Position numbers and translations under genes: made by a program
The notes under the pieces: generated by a model
Database searches by the model: none
What the model was told of the DNA's origin: nothing
What the model saw: only the letters and a program-made list of their open reading frames with translations
Shown here: positions 22,694-48,834 of the stretch, in pieces
How the letters are laid out: the number at the start of each line of letters is the position of its first letter
Position numbering within the stretch: position 1 is the stretch's first letter
NCBI RefSeq assembly: GCF_003584685.1
Contig: NZ_AP018549.1
Span: 1,488,001-1,552,000, forward strand
Length of the DNA stretch: 64,000 bases
Origin: Lactobacillus paragasseri
GTDB taxonomy: Bacteria > Bacillota > Bacilli > Lactobacillales > Lactobacillaceae
Direction of reading: 5' to 3'

Positions 22694-23707
22694 ATGACAG
22701 TTCATATCACGAATTTATATGGCATGGCAATGAATAGTGTTGCGCAATTAGCACAACAAATGGTCGCTAAAATCGGAGTCCAAATGGGAATGAACGAACT
22801 CGGTATTTACGCATACCATTGGAAAGAAGAACCAGACCAAGCTAAGAGTACTCGTTTTGACGGCATTATTGCCTCCTTATCAGTCGGCGATACTGTTATC
22901 TTCCAATCCCCTAATTGGATAGCAATTGAATGGGATCAAGCTTTGATTGATCATGTTAATATCTATCCAAATGTCAAAAAAATCATTTTTATCCACGACG
23001 TTATTCCCTTAATGTTTGAAAGCAATCGATACTTGCTTCCTCAACATATTGACTACTACAACAAGGCAGATGTCTTAATCGTACCTTCTAAAAAAATGTA
23101 CGACTTTTTAAGAGAAAATGGTCTAAAAGAAAAACCTTATGTTGTACAGCATTTTTGGGATCACTATCCTTGTCAAATTAATTATTTTGTTACCCCGCAA
23201 AATAACAAGGTAATTAATTTTGCTGGTAATGCAGACAAGTTTGACTTTGTTAACAATTGGGGAAATCCACGCGTTAAGTTACAAGTCTTCTCAGATCCAT
23301 GCAAAAAATTTGAAGATCAAAACTTAGAATTTATGGGTTGGAAAAATGATCCGATCTTACTTGAAGAACTACGCAGATCTGGTGGCTTCGGACTAGTTTG
23401 GTCAGAAGAACCATACTGGTCAGAATATATGACAATGAACACTTCTTATAAACTAAGTACCTATCTGGCTGCAGGAATTCCAATTATTGTAAATAGTAAA
23501 ACGCCGGAAGCAGAAACTATTAAACGTAAGAAACTAGGAATTATTGCTGATAGTTTAGCTGAAGCACAAGCCAAGGTTCTTCAGATCAATGACGATGAAT
23601 ACAAAGAACTAACTGATAATGTAGAAAGTTTTGCTAAGTTAATTCGTGAAGGTTATTTCACCAAGAAAGCATTAGCAGATGCCGTAGTTAAAGCCAGATA
23701 CGAATAA
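22694..23707 (+). CDS. gtf3: Gtf3/Nss-like sugar transferase for SRR adhesin glycans
   Basis: Glycosyltransferase of 337 aa resembling Gtf3 (Nss) of streptococcal Fap1/GspB loci, which adds the second sugar, glucose in the studied cases, to the GlcNAc placed by GtfA/GtfB. Features are [18 protein letters not shown] at the N-terminus, [15 protein letters not shown] near residue 96, and the nucleotide-binding [20 protein letters not shown] region near residue 255. AAGGAG precedes the ATG. It is on the plus strand, convergent with the minus-strand glycosyltransferase group, and separated from it by a bidirectional terminator, so it is expressed separately. Confidence 0.85.
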
Positions 23708-23797: not shown

Positions 23798-24682
23798 TTA
23801 GTTTTTCCACTTTTCAAGAATAGCCAGTTTTTGTAGTGTATCTCTGTATTTCAAATATTCTCCCTTATCTAACGCATGATTTTTCCATTTTTCTAACCGA
23901 TACCGATAAGCAGATTCTTCATTACTCGTATCAAAACCAATTAAACGTAGAATTGTAATTCTTTCCTCAATTGATCGTAAAGGAAAGACATCAGTTTCAC
24001 TTACACTGGCTGATACGCTTGATTTTAAAATACGATGCGTATAAATCGCTTTATTTTCATACGCAATTTTATTTGCAAGTAAATATATCTTCCATGTAGT
24101 CAAATCATCTTCTACTGGAACATTTTCAGGATAAACTATATTTTTAAATAAAGAGCGTTTATACAATTTATCCCATGGAACGGTAAAAACTAAAGACATA
24201 TTGTAGTAATCAGTGCGATACTGCAAGCTAAACCATTCTTTGATTGAATAATCTTTTTCAAAATAGCTATCTTTATTTAGCCAATAAGCAAAAGTCGACT
24301 TATCATCATAAAAAATGTTGAAATTCCCTGCTGCTATATCAGCCTTATTTTTTACGGCTAAGTTATACAAGTCTTCAATATGATGTTGATCAAGCCAATC
24401 GTAATGATCGACAAATAAAACGTATTCGCCAGTTGCTAGGGCAAGGCCTGCATTTCTGCTTGAACCAACCCCCCCATTTTTCTTATGAAGAACTCTGATT
24501 TGATTATATTTTTCACGATATTTTTCACATATTTCTGGCGTATGATCAGTTGAACCATCGTCTACCAAGATAATTTCTAAATCAGAATAAGTTTGAGCCA
24601 AAACACTGTCTACACACTGTCTTAAATATTTTTCATCGTTATACACAGGGATAATTACAGAGACTTTTTTACTATTTTCCAT
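23798..24682 (-). CDS. family 2 glycosyltransferase
   Basis: GT-A fold GT2 enzyme of 294 aa, with the opening VSVIIPVYNDEKYLRQCVDS, the nucleotide-binding LVDDGSTDHT and the acceptor-side GGVGSSRNAGLALATGEYVLF. The metal-binding DxD site is changed: instead of the common VDSDDW it reads VDHYDW (residues 91-96), keeping the first Asp and the last Asp. The start is ATG 24682 (AGTAGGT upstream); a TTG at 24697 would overlap the preceding gene. It is the last gene of the four-gene glycosyltransferase run and probably adds an outer sugar to the adhesin glycan. The donor is unknown. Confidence 0.85.
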   Translation of the reverse strand: MENSKKVSVIIPVYNDEKYLRQCVDSVLAQTYSDLEIILVDDGSTDHTPEICEKYREKYNQIRVLHKKNGGVGSSRNAGLALATGEYVLFVDHYDWLDQHHIEDLYNLAVKNKADIAAGNFNIFYDDKSTFAYWLNKDSYFEKDYSIKEWFSLQYRTDYYNMSLVFTVPWDKLYKRSLFKNIVYPENVPVEDDLTTWKIYLLANKIAYENKAIYTHRILKSSVSASVSETDVFPLRSIEERITILRLIGFDTSNEESAYRYRLEKWKNHALDKGEYLKYRDTLQKLAILEKWKN

Positions 24683-24689
24683 CTTAAAC

Positions 24690-26708
24690 CTACTCAATTC
24701 TCTCTATTATTTGATTACTATACATTTTGTCATGAATTGGTGTGATATTTACATCTCGATTAAATTCGGCCGTGTGCTTATTCTTTAATTTTACTTTATC
24801 AGTAACTCCCATTTTGAACCATTCATATTCTGAATCAATATGACCAATGTCAATCTTTTGATTATTAAGATCTTGCAAATCATCTACAATAACCTTAGCT
24901 GTAGGTCCAAGCATTAATAAGATCAACCGATTTTGGGCATTATTTCTAATTGCCTGTTCAATTTGATCAATCTTTTCATATGAATTCTTAGCTGGACACA
25001 AAATTCTCTTAATTGAATTTGCATTATCAAATAAATTGTTTCCTACGCCAGAACGTGAATATTTTCCTTCAACAATTAAAACATCACGTTGATTCCAAAT
25101 CCGTCTTAACTTTTCAAAATAACCAGGACTTTCGCTTTTATCGACTAAGTCAATATATGGTCTTGATACAAAAGTAGAGCCATACCAATTCTTAGTTTGT
25201 TCTATTCGCTTCAAGAAAGAAGCATTTTGCGGGAAAAAGCGCTTCTTATAAGTTCTTTGAGCATAGTCATTGTAGCGTGCCAAATCTTCAAATACATCTG
25301 GCAAACAAATCAGCGTATTGTCGTAATTGCCGCTTAAAATAATACTTTCTAAGCGTAGAGCTAATTCTTTATTGTAATCTTGATAAAAAATGGATTCACC
25401 GCGAATAATATTAAACTCGCCATCTCCAAAACGAATGACTGACTTATGTTTATTCAAAATTAAGTCTAATGATTCATCAATATCTTTTACTTTAATGTCA
25501 AAAGCAGAAGTTTCCTTTTTCTTATCAATTATTTTTTTAATTGCCTCTACCATTTCATCTTGAGCGTCATTTGCGAAAACATAATATTTATCATAAGAAA
25601 TATTATTATTTTTCGTTTCTTCAAAAGAAAGAATTGGCTTTTGCTGGTTAATAATTTTTTCGGTAACATCATCTTCCTTAAGATAGTTAATATCTAAAGA
25701 AAAGTCAGCATTGCTAATTAAATTATCTAAAGTTGGATTCATGACAAATGGATATAATTGGACATTGTCATACTTTACCAACTTTTCTAGGAGCCACGAC
25801 ATATTAGTATATGAAGCAATATTAAAACGTACATTAGATAATTTTTGAATTAATAATTCTAAATCTTTAGTTTCAGCAACACGAGCAAAAATAAATGCTT
25901 CAGCGTCAAATTCTGGTCTTCTAACCTTGCTCTTATCGAATTTACCATAGCGCTTAACAATATCTGACCATTCCAAATTATGATATTGCCACCAATTATT
26001 TCTTAAATCTCCTGTGGAAACCAAATTAAACGGGTTATCATCACCAGAATAGTTAATAATTCGAGGAATAGGCACCCTATTGTAATTATCAAAAACTACT
26101 TGTTTATTATTCCAATAAGCATTCTTTTCAAGACCAATCTGATAATTGTATGATAAGTTTAATTTTCCAATTTTATCTTTAAATACTTCATTAATAATTG
26201 CTTGATCATTTGCTAATCCTTGCTTTTTACTCATTTCAATGAGCTTAGAGCTCATTTTTTCTTCACGCCAGCGTTTATTATTGATTAGCATTACACTCGA
26301 GTTAAATTGGTCTGGATTTTGATAATCATGTACAGCAAACAGCATCTTATCATCAAAATTCATTTGGAAAATGCTTTGAAGATTATCAGTTACAATTAAG
26401 TCTGAATCAAGATAGAGAACCTTATCAGCTGAAATTAAATCAGGAATTAAAAAACGACCAAAAGAAATTTTCTTAATTTGATCAGAGCTAAGCTGAACAT
26501 CACCTAAAAAATTAGGATCTATTTTTTCATCAATTATCTTACTTCCAAATTGGTTTACGTATTGATTAACGTTAACAAACCATTCATGTGGAATATTAAA
26601 GTTAATAATATGAATTTCTACATGTTGATTATGAAGAAAAGTTGACTTAAGCGTTGTCTCAATTTTATTTAAATCGTTAACATCAGCATCTAATGCAATA
26701 GTATCCAT
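24690..26708 (-). CDS. three-domain glycosyltransferase: GT8 + GtfB-type domain + GT-D (DUF1792)
   Basis: A 672-aa fusion. Residues ~1-265 are a GT8 domain with DxD in VLYLDSDLIVTD; the ADYGY motif of its neighbours is altered to DADVND here. Residues ~278-395 match the C-terminal domain of GtfB (FIFARVAETKDLELLIQKL, then SFEETKNNN). Residues ~410-645 look like the GT-D fold, DUF1792 type (SVIRFGDGEFNIIRG with the DxE motif; then GKYSRSGVGNNLFDNA, MLGPTAKVIVDDL). In Streptococcus parasanguinis the DUF1792 enzyme dGT1 adds the third sugar to Fap1. One protein may thus add several sugars. It overlaps no gene; the GT2 gene begins 7 bp downstream. Confidence 0.85.
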   Translation of the reverse strand: MDTIALDADVNDLNKIETTLKSTFLHNQHVEIHIINFNIPHEWFVNVNQYVNQFGSKIIDEKIDPNFLGDVQLSSDQIKKISFGRFLIPDLISADKVLYLDSDLIVTDNLQSIFQMNFDDKMLFAVHDYQNPDQFNSSVMLINNKRWREEKMSSKLIEMSKKQGLANDQAIINEVFKDKIGKLNLSYNYQIGLEKNAYWNNKQVVFDNYNRVPIPRIINYSGDDNPFNLVSTGDLRNNWWQYHNLEWSDIVKRYGKFDKSKVRRPEFDAEAFIFARVAETKDLELLIQKLSNVRFNIASYTNMSWLLEKLVKYDNVQLYPFVMNPTLDNLISNADFSLDINYLKEDDVTEKIINQQKPILSFEETKNNNISYDKYYVFANDAQDEMVEAIKKIIDKKKETSAFDIKVKDIDESLDLILNKHKSVIRFGDGEFNIIRGESIFYQDYNKELALRLESIILSGNYDNTLICLPDVFEDLARYNDYAQRTYKKRFFPQNASFLKRIEQTKNWYGSTFVSRPYIDLVDKSESPGYFEKLRRIWNQRDVLIVEGKYSRSGVGNNLFDNANSIKRILCPAKNSYEKIDQIEQAIRNNAQNRLILLMLGPTAKVIVDDLQDLNNQKIDIGHIDSEYEWFKMGVTDKVKLKNKHTAEFNRDVNITPIHDKMYSNQIIERIE

Positions 26709-26745: not shown

Positions 26746-27990
26746 CTACTTGGCTAATTGTCTAATTCTTTGCACCATTTGATTTACTTGATCATCACCA
26801 AATACCTCATACCTTGAATATTTATTATTTTTATCTGCTGTTGATTCAAATGATAAGATTGGAATGTCTTTTTCTTTTATTTGTTCAACAATATCTTTTT
26901 CTTTATTTCCTTCATTTATATCTAGATAAATATTTGTATTCTTAAATAAATAATCCAGACGTTTTCCAATTACAAAAGGATACAAAGTAATATTAGGATA
27001 TTTAGCCAAATGCTTTAAATTCCAAGCCATATCACTCCAAGCCGCAACATTAAAATGAAATTCTGGTAGCTTTTGTACTAATTCTTCTAAATGATCAATA
27101 ATAGCTGAGTTAGTAAAAGTAAATATTTCTCCAGCAAAATGTCTTTCTTTTAGTTTATCCAAATTTAATGGCTTATACTTTTCTACTACTTGGCTTAACT
27201 CTAGATTTCGATAAAACCACCAAGTCTCCCTCATTCTTCCTTCAGAAAAGATATTGAACGGTTTATCATCTGAAATATAATGAATTATTTTTGGATTCTT
27301 TACTTTATCCAATATTTCAGTTGCTGTTTCTGTATTAGAATTATTTGACCAAAATAGAAATCTATCCGCACCAATTTGATAATTATATTTAAAAGATAAA
27401 CTTCCGATTTCATCCTTAAACCAATTGTTAATTGTATCTTGGTCATCTTGCGGAAAATTATTTTTCCGAGCAAAATCTAACAGTTTTTCGCTCAAATTAT
27501 GGTCTTTACGCAATTCCTGATTATTAATTAGTAAAACACCTGCATTTATCGAAGGTACAGGAAGATCTACTCTACTTTCATTTTTATTTCTAACATCAAA
27601 AATATGCGTGACTGCTAAAATCTTTTTTCCATTAAACTTGCGAGAAAATAGTTCATCAATTTCATCATCTACAACAAGATCGGAATCTAAATATAATACT
27701 CGATTTGCTTTAATTAATTTAGGTATTAATAAACGAGCATAAGTCATTTGATTAATATGTTTGAATCCAGAATTCAAATCATGCAATTCTTCGGGATCAA
27801 ATTTCTCGTCAATAATTTTGGAATCAATTTGATTTGCATAACGATTAATATTTGCGAACCATTCTTGGGGAATATCATAGTTTAAAAGATATATCTCTAC
27901 GTTTTTTACATTATATAAAATTGATTTTATTGTTGTTTCAACTTTATCGATATAACCATAATTAGCGCTTAAAGCAATTACTTTTTCCAT
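26746..27990 (-). CDS. GT8 glycosyltransferase with GtfB-type C-terminal domain (second copy)
   Basis: Enzyme of 414 aa, a tandem paralogue of the next upstream gene. The N-terminal half is GT8 (KVIALSANYGYIDKVETTIK, DxD in VLYLDSDLVVDDE near residue 103, QDDQDTINNWF, IIHYISDDKPF near 225). The C-terminal ~120 residues (FTNSAIIDHLEELVQKLPEF onward) align by eye with the C-terminus of GtfB from the same locus. In the cell it probably works on the glycosylated SRR adhesin. GGAAGAG precedes the ATG and the preceding gene ends 5 bp upstream, so the genes are co-transcribed. Confidence 0.88.
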   Translation of the reverse strand: MEKVIALSANYGYIDKVETTIKSILYNVKNVEIYLLNYDIPQEWFANINRYANQIDSKIIDEKFDPEELHDLNSGFKHINQMTYARLLIPKLIKANRVLYLDSDLVVDDEIDELFSRKFNGKKILAVTHIFDVRNKNESRVDLPVPSINAGVLLINNQELRKDHNLSEKLLDFARKNNFPQDDQDTINNWFKDEIGSLSFKYNYQIGADRFLFWSNNSNTETATEILDKVKNPKIIHYISDDKPFNIFSEGRMRETWWFYRNLELSQVVEKYKPLNLDKLKERHFAGEIFTFTNSAIIDHLEELVQKLPEFHFNVAAWSDMAWNLKHLAKYPNITLYPFVIGKRLDYLFKNTNIYLDINEGNKEKDIVEQIKEKDIPILSFESTADKNNKYSRYEVFGDDQVNQMVQRIRQLAK

Positions 27991-27995
27991 TACTC

Positions 27996-29213
27996 TTACT
28001 CTTCCAAATTTTTAATCTCTTGCACCATTCGATCTACTTGGTCATTTCCAAATACCTTATAATTTGAATATTTACTATCTTTATTTGCAGTATCTTCAAA
28101 AGATAAAATTGGAATACCTTTGTCTTCGATTTGCCGTAAAACATTTTCATCTTTTTGATAATGATTAATATCTAAGTACAACTCACATTTTTTAATCAGT
28201 TCTTCTACACGGGCATAGATTATTGCAGGGTAAACAGTGACATTCGGATATTTCATTAGATTCAATAATCCTGTTGCAACTTCTGTATAAGCTGCAATAT
28301 TGAAGTGAACTTCTGGTAATGCCTTAATTAAGCTTTCAAGATTTTGGATATTAGCAGAATAAGTAAAAATTAAAGCTTCCGTAGCAAACTTAGGTGCTCC
28401 TATTTTCATCGAATCAAAGATCGTAAATTTCTGGACAAGCTTTGATAACTCTAAATTACGATAAAACCACCATTTTTCTCGCATTATTCCCAAATAACAA
28501 AAATCTGATGGCTTTCCTTTCATAACATAATGGATGATTTTAGGGTCTTTAACTGAATTAAGAAGATTGATCATTCGCTGATCATTTCTAGAGTAAGCAA
28601 AATATGTCGCACCCACCTGATGGTTGTATTTATGAGGAAGCAAGCCAATCTTATCCTTGAAATATTCATTAATTATTTGCTGATCGCCATTGACGTAATT
28701 TTTACGACTCATTTCAATTAAGTCGCGACTTACATTGTTCTTTTTTAATGCAGCATTATCTAAAACTAAAACTCCGGAATTTATCAAACAGTTAGTCGTT
28801 GCATCTCCTTGATCGTCTGAATCAAAGATATCGCCTACTCCCAATATTTCTTTTCCATTAAAAGGAATTGTAAATAAGTCATCAATGGCATCATCCACAA
28901 TTAAATCACTATCTAGGTATAAAACTCTATCTTCTGGTACCAATTCCGGAATTAAAAATCTAGCAAATCCCATTTCATTAATACCCGGTCTTGGACCCTG
29001 CGAATCGTTTAAAATTCCATGATCAAACTTTGCATCAATTACTTCAGAGCCAATCTGGTTAACATACTGATTAATATTAACAAACCATTCCTGTGGAATA
29101 TCACAATTCAAAAGATAAATCTTTACATACTGGTTGTTATATAAAATTGACTTAATCGCAGTCTCTGCTTTATCCAGATACCCATAATCTGCGCATAAAG
29201 CGATTACTTTCAT
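27996..29213 (-). CDS. GT8 glycosyltransferase with GtfB-type C-terminal domain (first copy)
   Basis: Enzyme of 405 aa and first gene of the glycosyltransferase run. The GT8 domain covers ~1-260 with ALCADYGYLDKAETAIKS at the start, DxD in LYLDSDLIVDD near residue 100 and the HYVMKGKPSDF region near 215. The C-terminal ~120 residues (LESLIKALPEVHFNIAAYTE, ELYLDINHYQKDEN) closely parallel GtfB residues LQEIVEALPNINFHIAAITE and DIYFDINHGNE. GGAG lies before the ATG. The IS element ends 134 bp upstream of the start codon, so transcription may now depend on a promoter in that gap or in the IS. The sugar donor is not predictable. Confidence 0.88.
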   Translation of the reverse strand: MKVIALCADYGYLDKAETAIKSILYNNQYVKIYLLNCDIPQEWFVNINQYVNQIGSEVIDAKFDHGILNDSQGPRPGINEMGFARFLIPELVPEDRVLYLDSDLIVDDAIDDLFTIPFNGKEILGVGDIFDSDDQGDATTNCLINSGVLVLDNAALKKNNVSRDLIEMSRKNYVNGDQQIINEYFKDKIGLLPHKYNHQVGATYFAYSRNDQRMINLLNSVKDPKIIHYVMKGKPSDFCYLGIMREKWWFYRNLELSKLVQKFTIFDSMKIGAPKFATEALIFTYSANIQNLESLIKALPEVHFNIAAYTEVATGLLNLMKYPNVTVYPAIIYARVEELIKKCELYLDINHYQKDENVLRQIEDKGIPILSFEDTANKDSKYSNYKVFGNDQVDRMVQEIKNLEE

Positions 29214-30902: not shown

Positions 30903-31369
30903 CTGTTATCTTCTTCTCTTTCTATTCTTTTTACGTCTTAAACCAAGTAAACCACCAACAGCAGTTGCAAGTAGACCAAGTAATGATGACGAATTCGTAG
31001 AAGCACCAGTTTGTGGCAACTTACGACGAGTATTCGTTCTTACCCGATGTTTCTTAGCACTAACTTGTTGTTCAGTTGATTCTGCTGGCTGTTTTTCTGG
31101 AGTAATGTTTACGCTAGTTTGTTCGCTGACAGATTCAGCAGGACGTGAAATAGATGGATTCGTAGTACTATTAATTGATTCTGAATTATTAGTATTACTG
31201 TTCGTTTCAGAAGTACTCTCAATTACTTCTGAGTGAGTAGAAATTGAAGTTGATTGACTAATTGAATTACTAATTGAAGCTTCACTTTCACTTAATGAAT
31301 TGCTTAGGCTTCCACTCTGGCTTGTTGAACCTTGTGAATGTCTTGGAGTATTAGAACCTGAATTGCTTA

Positions 31370-34300
31370 AGCTGTTACTCAAACTCTCGCTTTGGCTCAA
31401 TGAGTTACTCAAGCTTTCACTCTGACTTAATGAGTTACTTAAGCTTTCACTTTGACTTAAGGAGTTAGACAAGCTTTCGCTCTGGCTCAAGCTGTTGCTC
31501 AAACTCTCGCTTTGGTTCAAGCTGTTACTCAAGCTTTCACTTTGGCTCAAGCTGTTGCTCAAGCTTTCACTCTGACTTAAGCTTTCGCTCTGGCTGAGTG
31601 AGTTACTTAAGCTTTCGCTTTGACTCAAGCTGTTACTCAAGCTTTCACTCTGGCTTAAGGAGTTACTCAAGCTTTCACTTTGACTCAAGCTGTTGCTCAA
31701 GCTCTCACTCAAGCTGTTGCTCTGGCTTAAGGAGTTACTCAAGCTTTCACTCTGACTCAAGGAGTTGCTTAGGCTTTCACTCTGGCTGAGTGAGTTGCTC
31801 AAGCTCTCGCTTTGACTCAAGGAATTGCTTAGACTCTCACTCTGACTCAAGGTGTTACTCAAGCTTTCGCTCTGGCTGAGTGAGTTACTCAAACTCTCGC
31901 TTTGACTTAGTGAATTACTTAAGCTCTCGCTTTGACTCAAGCTGTTACTCAAACTCTCACTTTGACTCAAGGAGTTACTTAAGCTCTCGCTTTGACTCAA
32001 GGAGTTACTCAAGCTATTGCTCAAACTCTCACTCTCACTTAAGGAGTTGCTTAAGCTTTCGCTCTGACTTAATGAATTACTCAAGCTCTCGCTTTGACTC
32101 AAAGAGTTGGACAAGCTCTCACTCTGACTTAAGGAGTTAGACAAGCTCCCACTTTGGCTCAAGCTGTTGCTCAAGCTCTCACTCTGACTCAAGGAGTTAG
32201 ACAAGCTCTCACTTTGGCTGAGTGAATTACTTAAGCTTTCGCTTTGACTTAAGCTGTTGCTCAAACTTTCACTCTGACTGAGTGAGTTACTCAAGCTCTC
32301 GCTCTGACTTAGTGAATTACTCAAACTCTCACTTTCGCTTAAGGAGTTGCTTAAACTTTCGCTCTGGCTTAAGGAGTTACTCAAGCTCTCGCTTTGACTT
32401 AAGGAATTGCTTAGGCTTTCGCTTTGGCTGAGGGAGTTACTCAAGCTTTCACTCTCACTCAAGGAGTTACTCAAACTCTCACTCTGACTCAAGCTGTTAG
32501 ACAAGCTTTCGCTCTGGCTGAGGGAGTTACTCAAGCTTTCGCTTTGGCTCAAGCTGTTACTCAAACTCTCACTCTGACTCAAGGAGTTAGACAAGCTTTC
32601 ACTCTGACTCAATGAGTTAGACAAGCTCTCGCTTTGACTCAAGCTGTTACTCAAGCTTTCACTCTCACTCAAGGAGTTAGACAAGCTCTCACTCTGGCTT
32701 AAGGAGTTACTCAAACTCTCGCTCTCACTCAAGGAGTTACTCAAGCTCTCGCTTTGACTGAGTGAGTTACTCAAACTCTCACTCTGACTCAAGCTGTTGC
32801 TCAAGCTCTCGCTTTGACTGAGTGAGTTACTCAAACTCTCACTCTGACTCAAGCTGTTGCTCAAGCTCTCACTCTGACTCAATGAGTTACTTAAACTTTC
32901 ACTTTGGCTCAAGGAGTTACTTAAGCTTTCACTTTGGCTTAAGGAGTTGGACAAACTCTCACTCTCACTCAAGGAGTTGCTCAAGCTCTCACTTTCACTC
33001 AAGCTGTTACTCAAACTCTCACTTTGGCTCAATGAGTTACTCAAACTCTCACTTTGGCTGAGTGAATTACTTAAGCTTTCGCTCTGGCTCAAGGAGTTAG
33101 ACAAGCTTTCGCTTTGACTCAATGAGTTACTCAAACTTTCGCTCTGGCTCAAGCTGTTACTCAAACTCTCGCTTTGGCTTAGAGAGTTGCTTAAACTCTC
33201 ACTTTGGCTAAGCGAGTTACTCAAACTTTCGCTCTGGCTCAAGCTGCTGCTCAAACTCTCACTCTGGCTCAAGCTGTTGCTTAAACTTTCACTCTGGCTC
33301 AATGAGTTACTCAAACTTTCGCTCTGACTTAGTGAGTTACTTAAACTCTCACTTTGGCTTAGTGAGTTACTCAAACTCTCGCCCTGACTCAATGAGTTAC
33401 TTAAACTTTCACTTTGGCGCAATGAGTTACTCAAGCTCTCGCTTTGACTCAAGCTGTTGCTCAAGCTTTCGCTCTGGCTCAAACTGTTACTTAAGCTTTC
33501 GCTTTGGCTCAAGCTGTTGCTCAAACTCTCGCTTTGGCTCAATGAGTTAGACAAGCTCTCACTCTGACTCAATGAGTTACTCAAGCTTTCACTTTCGCTG
33601 AGGGAGTTGCTTAAGCTTTCGCTCTGACTTAGTGAGTTACTTAAACTTTCACTTTGGCGCAATGAGTTACTCAAGCTCTCACTCTGGCTCAAACTGTTGC
33701 TCAAACTCTCACTTTGGCTGAGTGAGTTACTCAAGCTTTCACTCTGGCTCAAGGAGTTAGACAAGCTTTCACTTTGGCTAAGTGAGTTGCTTAGGCTTTC
33801 ACTCTGGCTTAAGCTGTTGCTCAAACTCTCACTTTGACTCAAAGAGTTGGACAAGCTCTCACTCTGACTTAAGGAATTACTCAAGCTTTCGCTCTGGCTC
33901 AAAGAGTTGGACAAACTCTCACTCTGACTCAAGCTGTTGCTCAAACTCTCGCTTTGACTTAAGGAGTTAGATAAGCTCTCACTCTCACTTAAGCTGTTGC
34001 TTAGGCTTTCGCTCTGGCTTAATGAATTACTCAAGCTCTCGCTTTGACTGAGTGAATTACTTAAGCTTTCGCTCTGGCTGAGTGAATTGCTTAGGCTCTC
34101 GCTTTGACTCAAGCTGTTACTCAAGCTTTCACTCTCACTCAAGGAGTTACTCAAGCTCTCGCTTTGACTCAAGCTGTTGCTCAAGCTTTCACTCTGACTT
34201 AAGGAGTTGCTTAGGCTTTCGCTCTGACTGAGTGAATTACTCAAGCTCTCACTCTGGCTCAAACTGTTGCTCAAACTCTCGCTTTGGCTTAGAGAGTTGC

Positions 34301-34960
34301 TTAAACTCTCACTTTGGCTAAGCGAGTTACTCAAGCTCTCGCTCTGGCTCAAGCTGTTACTCAAACTCTCGCTTTGGCTGAGTGAATTACTCAAGCTCTC
34401 GCTTTGACTTAAGGAGTTAGATAAGCTCTCACTCTCACTTAAGCTGTTGCTTAGGCTTTCGCTCTGGCTTAATGAATTACTCAAGCTCTCGCTTTGACTG
34501 AGTGAATTACTTAAGCTTTCGCTCTGGCTGAGTGAATTGCTTAGGCTCTCACTTTGGCTCAAGCTGTTGCTTAAACTCTCACTCTGACTTAAGGAATTAC
34601 TCAAGCTTTCGCTCTGGCTTAGTGAGTTAGACAAGCTTTCACTTTGACTCAATGAGTTACTCAAGCTCTCGCTTTGACTTAAGCTTTCACTCTGGCTCAA
34701 GGAGTTACTCAAACTTTCGCTTTGACTCAGTGAGTTACTCAAACTCTCACTTTCACTCAGTGAGTTACTTAAGCTTTCACTTTGGCTAAATGAATTACTC
34801 AAGCTCTCGCTTTGGCTTGTTGAATGACTTAGACTCTCACTTTGACTGAGTGACCTACTGGTACTTTCACTTTGTCTAATTGAATTACTTAAGCTTCTAC
34901 TTATACTTCCTGAAGTAGCTTCACTAATACTTAATGATTCACTTCTACTTTCGGATCTTT
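31370..34960 (-). repeat. long serine-rich repeat region (about 115 decapeptide units)
   Basis: 30-bp coding units for [10 protein letters not shown], with occasional ESE for QSE variants and rare substitutions such as R, G or N. The peptide is almost constant while the codons vary by synonymous changes (CTC/CTT, TCA/TCG, AAG/AAA and so on). Larger exact duplications lie on top of this 30-bp period. It is coding, not a CRISPR array. Confidence 0.95.
33946..34550 (-). repeat. 155-bp exact direct repeats within the serine-rich region
   Basis: 33946-34100 and 34396-34550 are identical over 155 bp, 450 bp (15 units of 30) apart. A 60-bp tandem copy is also seen at 32741-32800 and 32801-32860, and a 65-bp match links 33160-33224 to 34270-34334. 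These point to recent unequal recombination. Confidence 0.85.
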
Positions 34961-35097
34961 GAATTGAATAACTATTTGAAATACTATTAGATACACTCTG
35001 ACTTGCGCTAATGCTTTGGATATCTGTGTAATGTAAATAAACAGTGAACTTATTAGGACTGTCAATTAAATTACCATAAGGATAAGCAGTTAAATTC

Positions 35098-38000
35098 TTA
35101 AGATCTACTCCTTCTGGGGGGGGTAATTACCTTTCCTGTTTGGTTATTAACAACTTTCTCAAGGCTATAACCTAACTTTTCCAAATATGCCAAAGTATCA
35201 GTAGCATTTGAAAAATCAATTTTACTATCGGCTGTTCCTTGAGCAGTATTTGTTGCAGACACAATCGTAATTGGATTAGCAGGATCATTGTCATTAACAA
35301 ATTCTAGAGTTGCAGTTCTTGTATTAGTTGGATCTACGGCATTTTTAACATCACCACTAGTGTCATACCGAATTAGAGCTGCCCATTTTTGTCCCTGGAC
35401 TCCAGTAGAATCTTTACCAGTTGTATTATTAGTAACTTTCATTAAAGCAATAGGTGTTTTTTCTAACGCATTTAGAAGAGTCTTGTTAGATGTATCTGCA
35501 CCATTAAAATTATCAGCATCTATTAAATGATCGTAATCTTCTTGATAAGTTTTAATATCAGATGGCATCGTAAATTCATTAGAAGAAACAGTTAATGGGC
35601 TAATGCTTCCATCCAATCTGGCATTTGGATTAGATAATTTAATATGATAAACTCTTTGAATTCTACCACTCGCATCAACTGGCGTATCAGTATGTGTAAC
35701 CGTTACTTCAGAGTCAACTTTATCACCATTTTTTTCGTTATTATTCAAATATACATTTGATTCTGAATCTACTGTATTACTTAAATCATTCGTTACATAT
35801 TTAGCAAGGTGATCTTTTATTTGAGTTGCTAGATCTTCATCTGTAGCCCATTGATAATTAAAGACATCATTTTTCCCTACGCTAACGGTAATGTCAAAAT
35901 TATTACTAGTATTTTGATTAGAATTTTTTGCCCCATTTGTAGCAATATTAACAGTTACCCTGTTGTACCAGTTAGTAGCGATTCCAACTTTATTATCTGG
36001 ATACCAAATACGATTGTACGGTTCAACCATACTTGAATAAGTTTGATCATTTCCTTTCAGGTATTGTCCATCATAGACATATTGTCCTTGAATATGCAAA
36101 CCACTAGCATAGCGTTGTCCATTTATTGTGACATCGTTAGTTGGAGTATAAGCAAACTTTGTACCATTAAGAGATAGATCATTGGTATATTTATAAACAA
36201 AGGTAGTACCTAAGTTAGTAGTATTACTGCTACTTTGATCAGTACTAATTGAAGGAGTTTGTGAACCCGGATTACCCCAACTGAGCTTTAAATTCCAAGA
36301 AGGATGGTTATTACCAGTCGTATATTTAGCTGCATTTGCGTTAAATACTATCCTATAATACGTTCCCATATTATAAGCTGTTCCGACTTGAGTACCATCT
36401 GTAGTAGTTATGGCTAAATTATTTCCAAGCTTAGTATCATATTCTTTAATGGAACCATCTGCATTAGGTAAACCTAGTTGTACATCAAAATAATCTCCAC
36501 TCTTTAATTGAGTAGTTGGAGTAAAGGTAAAATGAAGTTGTTCATAACCTGCATCATTAATTGTTTCTCCTTTATAAGGAGTAACCTTAAGATTGCTGAT
36601 ATTATATGAAGTAGTATCTAGTTTAGTACTACCAGCTTGAACGGTATAAGAAACCGATCCGTCATTTTGCTCGTTTACTGGATACTGACTTTTCACTACA
36701 TTTATAGGTGTTTTATCATTTCCAACTTTAAAAGTATATGTGAAGTCACTTCCAGCTGCGCCTTGGTTGGCATCTCCAGCAAGTTCAGATACTAATGGAG
36801 CTGTATTATACGAATATTTATACGAGCCACCATTTTGAGGATCCAATGTTAATTTAACAGTGTTAGTAGGAGAACTCCAAACCGGATTACTGCTTAAAGT
36901 AATTTCAAATAGCTTTTCTCCGTTTGGCCCATAATTTCCTAAATCTTGAACATTTGTAGGATTTACTCCAGCTCCAAATGTTATATCATCTTTTGTAGCT
37001 GTAAAACCTGCAGGAATCATCAAAATAAACTTAGGATTTTTTATAGTGGAATTTCCATAAGTTGATAAACGAAAAGTATAAGTAGGAAGCGTAGCACTAT
37101 TACCATTGTATACTTTTTCATTTGCGTCAAACCACGCAGTACCAGAGAAAGTCGGTGTTTGTGTGTTGTTTATATAGTAAGTTACATCTGTTGCATTGCT
37201 ACTTCTTACAACATCATAAGTCTTGCCATTAGCAGTAATCGTAGCAGTGCCTGCTGTACTTTGACCATCACTTGCAAGTTCAGATACTAACGGCGTACTA
37301 CTACTATTATATGTATAGCTTCCTTGTGCAGATGAATCTAAAGCTAACTTAAATTGTAAGCCAAGATCTTTGTTATTACTTTCTGATGGATTAAAGTTCA
37401 GCTTTACAAGGTATAGTTCTTCACCATTACTATTAGTTCCAATAGATTCAACACTGTAATCACTGCTACTGAAACTGTTAGTTCCTTTAAAATTATCCCC
37501 GAAATATTTACTTACAGTATCTGAAGAGATTAGACTATTGCCTGTTGCTGTGAATCCTTTAGGAATTGCAACAATAAATTGTGGCTTATCGACCGTCGTA
37601 GTACCGTTTGTTGACAACCGAACGTTTAAAGTAGGCAAATCAGTCGTTGGAGTATCAGCTGTATAGTTAGTGCTATTTGCTGAAACAAAAGTTCCATTTG
37701 AAAGATTACCCAAAGTAGCAGTACCAGTGAATGTTGGCTTAAGTGCTTGATTTACAGCATATTGGATTGAGGAAGCATATCCTTCAGTATTTACAACATC
37801 AACATGTTTTCCATCTATTGTAAAGCCCGTAAAGTTCCCGTTATTCCAACCTTGTCCATCACTTGCAAGCTCAGACACTAAAGGTGCAGTATATTCGTTA
37901 TAGCTATATTGCCCCGTGACAGTAGGGTCTAATGTCAGTTTAAATTTTCCACCAAAATTATTGCCCCAATTAGGATTAGCAGTTAGAGTTATACTAAAAA

Positions 38001-39180
38001 GCTGTTCGCCATTAGGTCCTACTTCACCTAAATCTTTAACAGAATATTCACTAGAAGAAAAGCTCTCAGGGCCACTAAATCCAGCGTTAAATGGATAAGT
38101 ATAACGACTACTTCCAAGTTGACTAAAGTCATTGACACTTGATTTAAATCCCTTGGGGATCATTACAAAAAATTGTTGACTATTAGTAGTGTCATTATTT
38201 GCCGTAGAAAGTCGAAAAGCTAAGTTAGGAAGACTTGATGCAGATGTTGAGCTCGTATATGAAATATCACTACCTGAAACATATTTTCCATCAGTACCTA
38301 TATATCCTAGGAGCGCAGTACCTGTAAAATCTGGCTTAGCAACCGTAGCATCAGTAGCTGCCAAAGTCATAAAGTTAGCAGCTAAAGTAACTGGTAATTG
38401 AGAATTTGAATTATTCGAAGTGGAATTATTACTAGAAACACTATTAAAGGCTAATGGTAAGTTAGACAATGAAGAAAGATCATTACTTAAATTAAGACTT
38501 GCCTGTAAGTTGGTCGTAATATCATTAGAAGTAGAAGCATATGTAGAACTCTGTTCTTGATTAGCAGAAGTAGAATTATTTGAAAGAGAGTTTTCGGCAC
38601 TCCGTCTATTATTTTGTCCACTCTTCTTTACATTTGCAGTTTCAGATTGACTCGCTTTATTGTCTGATTTATGTGAAGTACTCGTTGCTTGCTTATTAGA
38701 CTTAGCTTCTTTTTCTTTACTTTTAGCTAAGCTTAATGAATTAAGCGCACTTTCAGATTCACTTAATGAATGACTTAAAGATTCCGATTGGCTAATTGAC
38801 TGACTCAAAGATTTTGAAAGACTTTGAGATAGTTGTGTACTTTTAGAAGCTGAAGTTGATTTAGTTTTATCTTCAGAAGCGCTAATACTAAAAGTCTTAC
38901 TATCAGACTTGCTACCAGTAGTATCTGACGCACCACTCTTGATAAAGTCAGAAACTGATCCAACAACTTGTGACTTTGGATCAACGGAAGTTTGAGCCGC
39001 ATATACTCGCCCATTCGGAAGCAGGGCTCCACCAGTTGCTCCAACGCCAAGAATTGTAGCTAGACCTGCAATATCCTTCAGATAAGAAGTTGCATCATCT
39101 TTGTCATCTCTAATTGCATTAGGATCAACATAATGTTTAACATGTTTTTGAAGTTTTCTATTTTTAAAATATCTTCTCAT
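35098..39180 (-). CDS. SRR adhesin, 5' part: signal peptide, first serine-rich region and binding domains (frameshifted)
   Basis: 1,360-aa upstream half. The ~65-residue export signal has a basic start ([18 protein letters not shown]) and a glycine-containing hydrophobic stretch ([19 protein letters not shown]) ending near YAAQ, typical of accessory Sec substrates. A short Ser-rich region follows, then three ~195-aa repeats starting near residues 281 ([11 protein letters not shown]), 480 ([11 protein letters not shown]) and 676 ([11 protein letters not shown]), each with APLVSELA, then a non-repeat region and the start of a Mub-like domain. The frame ends ITPPRRSRS just after eight C (35116-35123), losing the long repeats and anchor. 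As read it would be secreted and unanchored. Confidence 0.88.
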
Positions 39181-39515: not shown

Positions 39516-39698
39516 TTATCTAACAAAAGTCTGCAATAAAATCATTACCAAAATAATTGTAAAACATACCCCCATAATGATTGTTTTCCAAGGAATTTCT
39601 TTTGGCTTTTTTTCGTATGCCTTTTGTTTATTCTTTTCTACTTTTGCCAATCTTTTTAATGCATGTCTTTCAACAAGCGTTTTACCTTTTTCACTCAT
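39516..39698 (-). CDS. small membrane protein, candidate Asp4/SecE-like subunit
   Basis: Protein of 60 aa. A highly charged N-terminal helix (MSEKGKTLVERHALKRLAKV) of ~35 residues is followed by one transmembrane segment (TIIMGVCFTIILVMILLQTF) that ends the protein. This SecE-like layout and the position as last gene of the accessory Sec operon, overlapping gtfB by 8 bp, match Asp4 of streptococcal loci, which is thought to serve as a SecE for SecY2. GGAG precedes the ATG. No second small gene (Asp5/SecG-like) is visible beside it. Homology itself cannot be shown by eye for so short a protein. Confidence 0.65.
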   Translation of the reverse strand: MSEKGKTLVERHALKRLAKVEKNKQKAYEKKPKEIPWKTIIMGVCFTIILVMILLQTFVR

Positions 39699-41019
39699 TA
39701 TTCAGCGCTCCAATTACCTTTTGATAATTTTCAACTGTCGTGTCTCCAGCAGTCAACCGCTGGTCATCAACAAATTTTTGCATCTTTTTTGCGTCTTCTA
39801 GCGCTTCATTAACTCGATGAGCCATATCATTCACTTGATCAACTTCAAAAATACTATCTGGACTTACAAAATTAGGATTATGCAAAGTATTCTTAAAGCC
39901 AACAATTAACATATTTTGCTCAAATGCGCCACGAACAGCATCAAGAATTTCATTACCATGATTAATGTCAAAATAGATGTCGCAAGACTGATATAGATCC
40001 TTCATTCTCTTTGGTGTAGCATTTGGATACAAGTGAACATTGTTATATTTATCAAAAGCTAAAAGCTTAGCCGACATTTCTGTTATCGCTGCAATATGGA
40101 AATTAATATTAGGAAGAGCTTCAACTATTTCCTGCAAGTGTTCTATTTGGTCAGAATTAGTCAAAATGACAGCCTCTGGTCGTAATTTATTCCCACGCGC
40201 ATGCGGATAAATCATCCCTAAAAAGCGAAAATCTAGCTTACCACCCTTAGGTAACTTATTTTTCCACTTCTCCCAATCCAAGTAATTCTCAAATACTACA
40301 TGCTTAGTACGTGTGCCATTCTTTGAAAGATAAGTCATATTACCCGGCAGCTCTTCACCTAACTTTTCATGCCAAAACAGCGTATCCGAGCCTTTTTCAC
40401 CCATGCCTAAGCTAACAAACATTGATTGGTTCAAAGTATTATAGAAAATATGATCTACCTTATAATGGCGTGCTCTTAAATAATATTGCATAAACTGGAC
40501 TAAATTAGAGAAATGTCTTGTTTCATCATCATCAAACAATAAAATATCTCCAGCTACTAAATAATGAACAATTACAGCTTTTCCCTCATTATCAAAGTAC
40601 TTTCGTAAAACTTCTTGTCCATTATTCACATAAGTTTTGGCAAAAATTCTGCCTTCACGATTATAATGATCAATCCAGCTTAATTGCCCCTTGTCATCTA
40701 ACCATCTTACTTCTTTAACTAACCGATTATTATCCGTTGCAGCAAAGACAATATCAGCTTTCTTTTGATGAAGATCGAAAATTTCACCTTTCTGCGCCGT
40801 AGCAACGATACGATAGAACTTAGGTATTTTAACTTTGTCAAAATATAAGGGAGTATTTTTATCTGTAACCTTACAATAAAATTTGATTGGCGAATCTACT
40901 TCTTTAGGTAAGAAACCATCATCATGAATCACGACTGAAGGAATATTAAGCCCAGCGAAAAGTTGCGATCTCAAAAAATCAGTTGATGCAACATCTAAGT
41001 TTTCAAATAAGTTAATCAT
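39691..41019 (-). CDS. gtfB: GtfB, accessory subunit of the SRR O-GlcNAc transferase
   Basis: Protein of 442 aa matching GtfB (Gtf2), the co-activator that binds the serine-rich acceptor and complexes with GtfA to place the first GlcNAc on Ser/Thr. It starts MINLFENLDVASTDFLRSQL, has beta-rich middle segments (TLFWHEKLGEELPGNMTYLS), and a C-terminal GT-B-type half (LTNSDQIEHLQEIVEALPNI, DIYFDINHGNE). Its length is normal. It overlaps gtfA by 8 bp upstream and the small SecE-like gene by 8 bp downstream, so translation is coupled. It acts in the cytoplasm before export. Confidence 0.92.
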   Translation of the reverse strand: MINLFENLDVASTDFLRSQLFAGLNIPSVVIHDDGFLPKEVDSPIKFYCKVTDKNTPLYFDKVKIPKFYRIVATAQKGEIFDLHQKKADIVFAATDNNRLVKEVRWLDDKGQLSWIDHYNREGRIFAKTYVNNGQEVLRKYFDNEGKAVIVHYLVAGDILLFDDDETRHFSNLVQFMQYYLRARHYKVDHIFYNTLNQSMFVSLGMGEKGSDTLFWHEKLGEELPGNMTYLSKNGTRTKHVVFENYLDWEKWKNKLPKGGKLDFRFLGMIYPHARGNKLRPEAVILTNSDQIEHLQEIVEALPNINFHIAAITEMSAKLLAFDKYNNVHLYPNATPKRMKDLYQSCDIYFDINHGNEILDAVRGAFEQNMLIVGFKNTLHNPNFVSPDSIFEVDQVNDMAHRVNEALEDAKKMQKFVDDQRLTAGDTTVENYQKVIGALNNE

Positions 41020-42541
41020 TTGTTAATTCTCCCAATACTTCTTTCCATTGCTTAGCTACGCGATCAGTTAGATAAGGTTCTGCAATTTGATATGATTTTT
41101 CATTAAAGGCTTTTAGATCACTTTGCTTAAACAATTTAATAATTGCCTTGGTCAATAATTCCACCTTGCGATATTCATTCCAATCTTCGTCATACGGCAG
41201 TAAATAACCATTTTCATTATTTTTAATAAAGGTTGGATCTCCATAAGGAACGTCAAAACCAATCATAGCTAATCCCGAGCCAATTGCCTCAAGTAGTGAT
41301 AACCCAAATCCTTCACTAGTTGAAGCAGCAATATAAGCCGGATATTTAACATAAATATCTTTTAAATCATGCTGTCCTTTTAAATGAATATAATCCTCAG
41401 CCTGGTGATTCTTAATCATTTCGTCAAGAGCTGCTCCTTCGCTGCCTTTGCCATAGATATCAAGCTTCAGTTCTGGAATTTGATTCTTAGCAGCAATCAC
41501 AGCTTTAACAATCCAATCAAGATGCTTTTCTTTAGCTAAACGCGATGCAGTAATAAGTGAAAATGGCTCACGTTTCTTAACCGGATACGTTAACTTCAAA
41601 AGACTACCAACCGGGATACAATCAACACGCGGTGTAATATGATAATATTTTTGAAATTGCCCTTCTAATACTTTCTTTTGAGCTGGAGTAGCTACCACAA
41701 AACTTGCTACTTCTGAAGCATGTGAAAATTGATACTCATAAAAGTTATTCCACAAAACATGATGATCATTAGTAAAGTGCTTATCATAGTGATCAGCATG
41801 AACCACAACGACAATTTTAGCAGGACCATGATTTTCAAAGATTAGTTGCCCATTAATTAACGACTTATCTTCATCTTCACGATCTAAGATAATAACATCT
41901 TTTTTAGTGAAACGAAGTGCTTTAAGCATCTTCAGATATAATTCATCTTTAGAATAAATAATTTCGCCATTTGTAAATTCGTACGTTTCTTGATCATTAT
42001 TTAGATGCTGAGTATAAGCAACTGAACCATCTTCATTGTAAAATTCTCTAAAAACTACACGATTATTTTCAGCTGTTCCTAGATAGTACTCAGCCGCATA
42101 CCTAGTATAAGAATAAAAATCACGTCTTAAAATGGTATTATTTTTTCGATAAACAACTTGATCAATAGTTTCTTTTTGGCGATCATGTAATCTTGCAACA
42201 GCATAAAAGTCATCTTTTAATTTATAAACAACTTCTTTGCCATCATTATTAGCCTCTTTAGTGAAATGCTTAAATTTCAAGCTAGCTTCAAAGGCTTTTA
42301 AGGTATAAGAAGTTTTAGCAATCTTAATATCAGTAAAAAAGTTATATAGCCAAATAATGCTTTGATCCTTAAAGCCCATATTAGCAGTCAGATCACCAAT
42401 ATTATTATCTAAAATTAAGTCAGAAAAAATAAATTTAGCGTCAATTCCAGTTTTTCTAAAACTTTGATCACGATACTTCTGTGCATACTCAACACCAGAA
42501 CTTGCCCAACCTATTCCTAAATTTACATTATAAACTGTCAT
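41012..42541 (-). CDS. gtfA: GtfA, SRR adhesin O-GlcNAc transferase
   Basis: GT4-type glycosyltransferase of 509 aa, the catalytic partner of GtfB. N-terminal residues read MTVYNVNLGIGWASSGVEYA, as in other GtfA proteins. The C-terminal GT-B half has SLITASRLAKEKHLDWIVKA near residue 320, GKGSEG, and the nucleotide-sugar site STSEGFGLSLLEAIGSGL near 405 with the conserved acidic residue of the EX7E motif. It transfers GlcNAc from UDP-GlcNAc to the SRR Ser/Thr residues. It starts 9 bp after secA2. Confidence 0.94.
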   Translation of the reverse strand: MTVYNVNLGIGWASSGVEYAQKYRDQSFRKTGIDAKFIFSDLILDNNIGDLTANMGFKDQSIIWLYNFFTDIKIAKTSYTLKAFEASLKFKHFTKEANNDGKEVVYKLKDDFYAVARLHDRQKETIDQVVYRKNNTILRRDFYSYTRYAAEYYLGTAENNRVVFREFYNEDGSVAYTQHLNNDQETYEFTNGEIIYSKDELYLKMLKALRFTKKDVIILDREDEDKSLINGQLIFENHGPAKIVVVVHADHYDKHFTNDHHVLWNNFYEYQFSHASEVASFVVATPAQKKVLEGQFQKYYHITPRVDCIPVGSLLKLTYPVKKREPFSLITASRLAKEKHLDWIVKAVIAAKNQIPELKLDIYGKGSEGAALDEMIKNHQAEDYIHLKGQHDLKDIYVKYPAYIAASTSEGFGLSLLEAIGSGLAMIGFDVPYGDPTFIKNNENGYLLPYDEDWNEYRKVELLTKAIIKLFKQSDLKAFNEKSYQIAEPYLTDRVAKQWKEVLGELTND

Positions 42542-44917: not shown

Positions 44918-44923
44918 GCTTTA

Positions 44924-45778
44924 TCACTTCCTCAAATATCGTTCTACATTATTGAGAACCTGTTGTTGATCAAGCTTAACCATCTCTGGAAGAAACCAAG
45001 GCTGTTGCCCTTGATTTTCTAAAGTATAATTCGAAGTTATAAATTCAAAATCACATTTTTTTGCCAATGAATCTTCCAAAATTTGATCTATTTTCTTGTC
45101 ACTGCTAAAGATAAGTACTGTCTCTTCTTCATGTTTTTTCAGCCACGACTCTAATCTAGAAACCGGGTTAAATAATTCTTGCCAACTAATATAACCCATA
45201 AAAATTTGCGTATCTGTAATAGTCGTCTTTAACTCTTCTGGAAGTTCTCTGGCTCTTTTATTATCTGCCACTAAAATTAAGGCTACTTTCTTTACTTCTT
45301 TCAGTTGATTTAATGGCATTACGAAAAATTCATCAAAGGCTTTTTCAGGTAAATCAGCTCTTCCAAGTTGAACTTTAGCAAAGTTAATTTCACTGCATCC
45401 CCCATTAATGATTTCAAAAGTATATGACACAGCTTGACTAGGATAAATAAATTCTTTTTCCATGGATGAAAACACGACTTTACTAATTTCATCAGCTTGT
45501 ATATCAAAGAAACGTAAGCAAAAAATTGCAGTATCTTCAGGATTTACTTTCATATTTATTTTTATACGATATTTTTTGCCACTTAATAAAATTGGTAGAC
45601 GTGGAACTTCTTTATAGGCCTGATAATTAAGCCTAGACGACCAGCGCATAATCTTCTCACCCGACGCCATTAAATTATTTTGGAAAGTAACTGTTTCATC
45701 GATTCTTTTACTTAATTTTGTTCCATACATATAGGTCTCATTAACTCGATCCCAATATATTTGATTAATAATTTTCAT
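44924..45778 (-). CDS. asp3: Asp3, accessory Sec secretion protein
   Basis: Protein of 284 aa recognised as Asp3 by position and by MKIINQIYWDRVNETYMYGT at the start and a beta-sandwich-like N-terminal half (LPILLSGKKYRIKINMKVNP). The C-terminal part has QLGRADLPEKAFDEFFVMPL and an alpha/beta segment. In streptococci Asp1, Asp2 and Asp3 form a complex that binds the SecA2 motor and the serine-rich substrate. The gene shares one base with asp2 and precedes secA2 by 6 bp. Confidence 0.9.
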   Translation of the reverse strand: MKIINQIYWDRVNETYMYGTKLSKRIDETVTFQNNLMASGEKIMRWSSRLNYQAYKEVPRLPILLSGKKYRIKINMKVNPEDTAIFCLRFFDIQADEISKVVFSSMEKEFIYPSQAVSYTFEIINGGCSEINFAKVQLGRADLPEKAFDEFFVMPLNQLKEVKKVALILVADNKRARELPEELKTTITDTQIFMGYISWQELFNPVSRLESWLKKHEEETVLIFSSDKKIDQILEDSLAKKCDFEFITSNYTLENQGQQPWFLPEMVKLDQQQVLNNVERYLRK

Positions 45779-48833: not shown

Positions 48834-48834
48834 T

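What the first reader, a model, noticed from the sequence alone, without database searches (positions are those of the whole stretch)
24690..26708. Three glycosyltransferase modules fused in one protein (GT8, GtfB-type, GT-D)
This 672-aa protein joins a GT8 domain with DxD, a domain resembling the C-terminus of GtfB, and a GT-D (DUF1792) domain with its DxE motif (FGDGEFNIIRG). In Streptococcus Fap1 loci the DUF1792 transferase is a separate or differently fused enzyme. A three-part fusion could hold the acceptor with the GtfB-like part and add two sugars in order, which I have not seen described for lactobacilli.
Basis: partly seen in the sequence, partly recalled or inferred. Interest (0 to 1): 0.8.

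Follow-up and report, generated by a model that had tools for sequence, protein, structure and literature searches.

The report
Adhesin-sugar enzyme with a failing domain
A Lactobacillus genome carries, in the gene cluster for a serine-rich surface adhesin, one protein that joins two sugar-adding domains through a small linking domain; such fusions also occur in streptococci, but here one sugar-adding domain has lost conserved residues that related enzymes use to bind metal and sugar donor, so that half is likely inactive and is probably kept as a holder.

Summary

New here: this GT8 keeps DxD but lacks the C-terminal metal-ligand His, the Lys of KPF/W and the Gly of FNxG. Key GT8 positions are changed in 41 of 79 single-unit fusions (27 share one change), 0 of 22 standalone units and 3 of 126 units of two-unit fusions. 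GT8 is still under purifying selection (omega 0.24; GT-D 0.06). Against: by raw count the window's GT8 is not more eroded than its GT-D. "Two sugars in order" is doubtful for this copy; a strain-level D558N leaves GT-D uncertain too.

The parts
24690..26708 (-). 672-aa fusion protein GT8 - add-on - GT-D (GlyD-type, TIGR03728)
25944..26708 (-). GT8 domain, residues 1-255; DxD (D101, D103), D168 and Q169 present; C-terminal metal-ligand His replaced (H219N), KPF/W Lys replaced (K225N), FNxG Gly replaced (G138S), N-terminal Tyr replaced (residue 12 Asp)
25512..25919 (-). GtfB-like Rossmann add-on, residues 264-399
24693..25496 (-). GT-D (DUF1792) domain, residues 405-672; DxE (D429, E431) present; D558 of GNDLF replaced by Asn in this strain
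26746..27990 (-). standalone GT8-add-on protein (GlyE-like), 414 aa; all 7 audited GT8 positions intact
27996..29213 (-). standalone GT8-add-on protein (GlyE-like), 405 aa; all 7 audited GT8 positions intact
23798..24682 (-). GT2 protein homologous to CgT, the C-terminal half of S. parasanguinis dGT1 (PDB 5hea/5hec, E 4e-66); the ATG lies 7 nt after the fusion's stop
22694..23707 (+). GtfC/Gtf3 homologue, second-step transferase (PDB 9hu9, labelled Glucosyltransferase 3, E 3e-133)
39691..42541 (-). GtfB (39691-41019) and GtfA (41012-42541), first-step complex
42551..50025 (-). SecA2, Asp3, Asp2, Asp1, SecY2: accessory Sec export system
30906..39180 (-). serine-rich repeat adhesin, the likely acceptor, lying in two ORFs (39180-35098 and 34802-30906) with a change of frame near a run of eight G at 35116-35123

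Best explanation
This 672-residue protein is a GlyD-type fusion of a GT8 domain, a GtfB-like add-on and a GT-D domain whose GT-D part likely adds the third sugar to an adhesin's O-glycan, while its GT8 part, which has lost the metal-ligand histidine and other conserved residues, is predicted to be inactive and to act with the add-on as a holder for the acceptor. Shown: domains, predicted folds, a cluster with accessory Sec and GtfA/B/C genes, and the residue losses. Inferred from homologues: GtfA/B add GlcNAc, GtfC the second sugar and GT-D the third (glucose in Fap1). The next gene (CgT homologue) and the two standalone GT8-add-on proteins would then add the outer sugars. Inferred and untested: the GT8 part is dead, and it is retained because its fold still helps position the acceptor.
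For: Domains and folds. Locus. Synteny elsewhere: 17 of 35 related loci carry SecY2, Asp or SecA2 genes within the fetched flanks; L024 and L027 have SecY2 to GtfB directly before the fusion. Steps: PMC6973325 section 9 gives GtfA/B, GtfC and DUF1792 as steps 1, 2 and 3; passages of PMC6291802 and PMC5063993 agree. GT8 losses: window D38N, G138S, H219N, K225N among 59 conserved GT8 columns; sister genome G021 also lacks the first DxD Asp (D101G) and R85. Key GT8 positions changed: 0/22 standalone units, 1/63 first and 2/63 second units of two-unit fusions, 41/79 single-unit fusions; 13 further standalone rows from Lactobacillaceae genomes, all intact. Metal ligands (101, 103, 219): 10/79 in single-unit fusions and 0 in the other three kinds, needing at least 5 changes on the tree. 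A passage of PMC7826918 reports that mutating GlyE's key residues, Asp-177 and Gln-178 among them, abolished its hydrolytic activity; Asp-177 aligns with D168, which is Thr in 27 of the 79 but intact in the window. Selection: omega GT8 0.24 (bootstrap 0.14-0.43), add-on 0.14, GT-D 0.06 for window vs G021, a GT8 to GT-D ratio of 4; in 20 pairs of other fusions GT8 was 0.06-0.26 and GT-D 0.11-0.48.
Against: DxD, N136, D168 and Q169 are intact in the window's GT8. Loss of the C-terminal His is compensated by water or Asp in some GT-A families (passages of PMC7185993), so H219N alone does not prove inactivity; all eight H219 changes seen are to Asn, which could be a tolerated ligand. K225 is intact in the 99%-identical P0001. 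Changed conserved columns are not concentrated in the window's GT8: GT8 4/59, add-on 3/25, GT-D 6/103 (Fisher p 1.0 for GT8 vs GT-D; P0009 p 0.015, P0054 p 6e-5). GT8 omega 0.24 lies inside the range of the other pairs; ten of those 20 pairs are D168T copies, whose GT8 (0.06-0.18) is not relaxed, which speaks against those being dead. dS differs between domains (0.21 vs 0.46), a sign of recombination. 16 of the 22 standalone units are streptococcal or GlyE itself, so the like-for-like control is 6 of them plus the 13 rows (10 genes). The window's GT-D itself carries D558N. Of eight lactobacillar loci with the GT8 fusion (L021-L027, L035), only L024 and L027 show accessory Sec genes within the flanks held. 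Acceptor binding by the add-on was not tested.
Confidence: 0.5

Rival explanations
1. Both catalytic domains work: GT-D adds the third sugar and the GT8 domain adds the fourth, as recalled for pneumococcal GlyD; the GT8 substitutions only change metal use or donor preference.
For: DxD, N136, D168 and Q169 are intact in the window copy; the GT8 domain is still under purifying selection; changed conserved columns are no denser in GT8 than in GT-D; C-terminal His loss is tolerated in some GT-A families (passages).
Against: Several positions changed at once (G138, H219, K225, residue 12), and the sister lineage has lost the first DxD Asp and R85; none of 22 standalone units and none of 13 rows has a change at the key positions.
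Confidence: 0.2
2. The gene, and perhaps the whole glycosylation cluster, is decaying in this strain: GT8 is lost, GT-D is impaired by D558N, and the adhesin gene is split.
For: D558N at a position that is Asp in 146 of 148 rows; adhesin in two ORFs in different frames; an IS3-family transposase ORF inside the cluster.
Against: The fusion, both standalone GT8 genes, CgT, GtfA-C and the accessory Sec genes are open reading frames matching most or all of their models or relatives; GT-D omega is 0.06; the adhesin's frame change sits near a run of eight G, which could be phase variation or a sequencing error.
Confidence: 0.15
3. The GT8 unit of the fusion is redundant where another intact GT8-add-on unit is present, and drifts without any holder role.
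For: Intact standalone units lie next door in the window and in G021; the D168T copies in G071, G024, G069, G058 and G059 lie beside a copy with intact GT8; G058 and G059 have a third copy whose GT8 part is broken while add-on plus GT-D stays open.
Against: GT8 omega 0.24 (0.14-0.43) is well below 1 between two copies that both already lack H219, and the frame is open in both; G210's changed GT8 has no second unit.
Confidence: 0.2

Closest known systems
GlyD of S. pneumoniae / NCBIfam TIGR03728 'SP_1767 family glycosyltransferase'
   Same: GT8-add-on unit(s) followed by C-terminal GT-D; S. pneumoniae protein P0082 (1077 aa) aligns over all of the query at 37% identity. That GlyD's GT8 and DUF1792 domains act in steps 3-4 is recalled from Jiang et al. 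2017, not read here.
   Different: The two-unit forms listed here (streptococcal where named) keep the audited GT8 positions in 123 of 126 units; the lactobacillar form has one unit, often with changed active-site residues.
GlyE of S. pneumoniae (PDB 5gvv, 5gvw)
   Different: GlyE is standalone and has the His, Lys and Gly that the window GT8 lacks
dGT1 of S. parasanguinis (GT-D plus CgT; PDB 4phr/4pfx and 5hea/5hec)
   Same: Same GT-D domain (52% identity); the CgT homologue is the next gene, 7 nt downstream
   Different: In dGT1 the GT-D is N-terminal and fused to CgT (abstract of PMC5063993); here it is C-terminal, fused to GT8-add-on, and CgT is separate
GtfB (TIGR02919; PDB 5e9t chain D)
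   Different: Only the C-terminal Rossmann half is present; no N-terminal GtfB half
L. reuteri 100-23 GtfD/E/F (described as GT4 plus DUF1792)
   Same: GT-D as the C-terminal half of a fused SRRP glycosyltransferase in lactobacilli (passage of PMC6291802; similar proteins in L046)
   Different: N-terminal partner is GT4 (GtfC-like in L046), not GT8-add-on

Membership tests
TIGR03728 / GlyD-type fused SRRP glycosyltransferase | GT-D part over the curated cut-off of TIGR03728 | tested here: met
   373.9 bits, cut-off 290.75
TIGR03728 / GlyD-type fused SRRP glycosyltransferase | GlyE-like GT8-add-on unit N-terminal to GT-D in one chain | tested here: met
TIGR03728 / GlyD-type fused SRRP glycosyltransferase | lies in an accessory Sec / SRRP locus | tested here: met
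   GtfA, GtfB, SecA2, Asp1-3 and SecY2 in the window
TIGR03728 / GlyD-type fused SRRP glycosyltransferase | transfers Glc or Gal to the disaccharide core | not testable with these tools
   needs an enzyme assay
Active GT8 (PF01501) enzyme | PF01501 over gathering score | tested here: met
   85.7 bits, cut-off 24.3
Active GT8 (PF01501) enzyme | DxD motif and D/E-Q motif | tested here: met
   D101, D103, D168, Q169
Active GT8 (PF01501) enzyme | C-terminal metal-ligand His and conserved Lys | tested here: not met
   H219N (H in 232 of 240 units) and K225N (K in 236 of 240)
GT-D (PF08759) | PF08759 over gathering score and GT-D fold | tested here: met
GT-D (PF08759) | DxE motif | tested here: met
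   D429, E431
GT-D (PF08759) | near-invariant Asp of GNDLF (D558); its role is not established here | tested here: not met
   Asn in the window and P0006; Asp in 146 of 148 rows
GtfB (TIGR02919) | full-length GtfB over the curated cut-off | tested here: not met
   67.4 bits against 338.3, profile positions 278-414 only
dGT1 (GT-D plus CgT in one chain) | GT-D and CgT fused | tested here: not met
   separate ORFs; CgT ATG 7 nt after the stop

The most novel reading that the evidence does not exclude
In lactobacilli the GT8 half of this fused enzyme has repeatedly become a pseudo-glycosyltransferase: its active site is dismantled in separate lineages while its fold is kept under selection, so that a dead GT8-add-on unit presents the acceptor glycopeptide to GT-D, a second 'dead partner' in the SRRP pathway beside GtfB. 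The reverse also occurs (GT-D Asp429 changed to Ala with GT8 intact in L. reuteri-type proteins), so strains would tune the adhesin's glycan by switching single domains of one fused enzyme off.
Probability: 0.3. Interest if true: 0.6.

Novelty: new variant of a known kind. Interest (0 to 1): 0.4.

Why it matters
The fusion itself is known. What a specialist could use is the domain-wise pattern of active-site loss: it predicts which half of each fused enzyme works, and so which sugars each strain's adhesin might carry, and it offers natural variants for testing whether fused glycosyltransferases need both active sites or only both folds. GT-D is also fused, in other loci, to GtfC (step 2) and to a CgT-like GT2 domain (step 4), so the pathway looks like an assembly line whose joints move between species.

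Tried and rejected
Rejected: the middle part as a third active glycosyltransferase (only the C-terminal Rossmann half of GtfB). Rejected: novelty of the fusion. Considered and not kept as main: loss of H219 as proof of inactivity (one search shows compensation elsewhere). Considered: donor prediction for GtfC from PMC12809243; [quoted passage not shown] Considered: the two-unit streptococcal fusion as a simple joining of window-type genes; on the trees the first units of two-unit fusions form one group and the two standalone window units group with other lactobacillar units, so no one-to-one join is claimed.

Literature limits: Jiang 2017 and Zhang 2014 are not held; what I say of them is recalled or comes from citing papers. 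All ten paper searches were used; none listed a paper whose title or printed start of abstract describes active-site loss in these fusions, searches listed nothing, and the library lacks most subscription papers. Only one section of one paper was read whole (PMC6973325 section 9); of the other cited papers I saw abstracts or passages.

Weaknesses: rows are related; 27 of the 41 changed fusions share D168T, and D168E (P0004) may be a normal variant. The 13 units cut by a locus end (10 with D168T) were left out of the 41/79 count. Many rows are unnamed metagenome proteins, so 'lactobacillar' and 'streptococcal' hold where named. Background columns were set without the window's clade and P0054. 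The tree is a quick one (SH-aLRT only); near-identical rows were dropped before it (102 kept), and counts of changes may include regains (P0004 has His inside the clade). One search scored only the 7996 candidates sharing most words and lists 120 of 1556 hits. On checking, two facts against the reading were added (D168T pairs without relaxed GT8; no excess of changed columns in the window's GT8), and I lowered the best explanation from 0.6 to 0.5, the drift rival from 0.25 to 0.2 and the novel case from 0.35 to 0.3.

Full report

SURROUNDINGS. All on the minus strand: SecY2, Asp1, Asp2, Asp3, SecA2, GtfA, GtfB (50025 to 39691), the serine-rich repeat adhesin in two ORFs, an IS3-family transposase, two standalone GT8-add-on genes of 405 and 414 aa (gaps of 5 and 37 nt to the next gene), the fusion, then 7 nt later a GT2 protein whose best PDB match is 5hea/5hec; 5HEC is the code given for CgT, the C-terminal half of dGT1 (passage of PMC5063993). 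Convergent to it lies a GtfC homologue (9hu9). In other genomes these proteins often keep this company: 17 of 35 loci fetched by homology carry SecY2, Asp or SecA2 genes within the flanks held. Of the eight lactobacillar loci with the GT8 fusion among them (L021-L027, L035), only L024 and L027 do.

IS THE FUSION NEW? No. Of the 120 best homologues, P0001-P0066 are lactobacillar where named and nearly all have the same three parts (three are fragments); most of the rest are proteins of about 1070-1080 aa with two GT8-add-on units and GT-D, S. pneumoniae, S. sanguinis and S. suis among the named ones. In 75 same-genus genomes 14 have GT-D; in 397 genomes of the family 38 do. GT-D has other partners too: a GT2 domain after it (L039), and GtfC before it (L043 as one ORF of 607 aa; L042 and L046 weaker). 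From recall, Jiang et al. 2017 described GlyD with GT8, add-on and DUF1792 and proposed that the add-on passes the acceptor along; that paper could not be read here. A review section read here says DUF1792 does step 3 and that a fused GT-A domain branches or extends the glycan (PMC6973325 section 9).

WHAT IS UNUSUAL. Aligned to GlyE, the window GT8 has Asn for the C-terminal His (H219N), Asn for the KPF/W Lys (K225N), Ser for the FNxG Gly (G138S) and Asp for the N-terminal Tyr at residue 12. The C-terminal His is a metal ligand in LgtC (passage of PMC7185993). Relatives in the same clade go further: G021, P0002 and P0003 also lack the first DxD Asp, and R85. An audit of seven GT8 positions over 240 distinct units gave changes in 0 of 22 standalone units, 1 of 63 first and 2 of 63 second units of two-unit fusions, and 41 of 79 single-unit fusions; the remaining 13 units, cut by locus ends, were left out. 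Of the 22, six are lactobacillar and 16 are streptococcal or GlyE. Of the 41, 27 share D168T; that Asp aligns with GlyE Asp-177, one of the residues whose mutation abolished GlyE hydrolysis according to a citing paper (passage of PMC7826918). Restricting to metal ligands leaves 10 of 79, and none in the other three kinds, with at least 5 changes on a 102-row tree. Thirteen further standalone rows (10 genes by their coordinates) from a family-wide scan were all intact. GT-D positions were changed in 9 of 79, four of them with GT8 intact (D429A in P0029-P0031; L012). In G058 and G059 a third copy has a GT8 part broken by stops, while a 394-aa add-on plus GT-D ORF stays open.

COUNTER-EVIDENCE. 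Counting all conserved columns, the window's GT8 is not more eroded than its other parts: GT8 4/59, add-on 3/25, GT-D 6/103, Fisher p 1.0 for GT8 against GT-D; the excess in GT8 is clear only in P0009 (p 0.015) and P0054 (p 6e-5), with G021 at p 0.23 and P0008 at 0.07. So the case for the window rests on which residues changed, not on how many.

SELECTION. Between the window and G021 copies, which both lack H219, omega is 0.24 for GT8 (bootstrap 0.14-0.43), 0.14 for the add-on and 0.06 for GT-D. In 20 pairs of other fusions GT8 is 0.06-0.26 and GT-D 0.11-0.48; two more distant pairs give GT8 0.18 and 0.22, GT-D 0.16 and 0.19. So in this lineage GT8 is relaxed relative to GT-D but still constrained. 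Ten of the 20 pairs are D168T copies, and their GT8 (0.06-0.18) shows no relaxation, which argues that D168T copies may still work. dS differs between domains, as in several other pairs, which suggests recombination and weakens this test.

A COMPLICATION. The window GT-D has Asn at 558, where 146 of 148 distinct GT-D rows, including ones from Clostridia, Bacteroidetes and Haemophilus contigs, have Asp; only the window and the fragment P0006 have Asn. P0001, 99% identical, has Asp. This strain's GT-D may be impaired, or the base may be wrong.

MECHANISM. Best supported: GtfA/B prime the adhesin with GlcNAc, GtfC adds the second sugar, GT-D of this protein adds the third, and the CgT homologue and the two standalone GT8 proteins add outer sugars; the fused GT8 is predicted inactive and kept as part of an acceptor holder. 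Steps 1-3 are inferred from homologues; inactivity and the holder role are inferred from sequence and untested.

VERDICT. The new content is the repeated, domain-wise change of active-site residues in lactobacillar fusions.

Noticed in passing
window 30906-39180: The adhesin gene lies in two ORFs in different frames (N-terminal part 39180-35098; serine-rich repeats with LPQTG anchor 34802-30906) with a run of eight G at 35116-35123 near the change of frame: phase variation, disruption or sequencing error.
   Followed up: partly
window 29384-30775: An IS3-family transposase ORF sits between the adhesin and the GT8 genes.
   Followed up: no
L043:7704-9524: GtfC and GT-D are one 607-aa ORF in Holdemanella porci: steps 2 and 3 of the SRRP pathway in one chain.
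   Followed up: partly
L016-L020, L025, L026 and other tandem loci: Several lactobacilli carry two or three tandem copies of the fusion; the second copy of the five audited tandem genomes (G071, G024, G069, G058, G059) has Thr at the GT8 Asp168 position, as do 27 of 79 single-unit fusions in all.
   Followed up: yes
P0029, P0030, P0031: Three related fusions (P0030 and P0031 named L. reuteri) have Ala for the GT-D DxE Asp while their audited GT8 positions are intact.
   Followed up: partly
L098, L103, L027:10834-12858: Fusion or GT8-add-on genes split over two ORFs in other Lactobacillaceae genomes.
   Followed up: no
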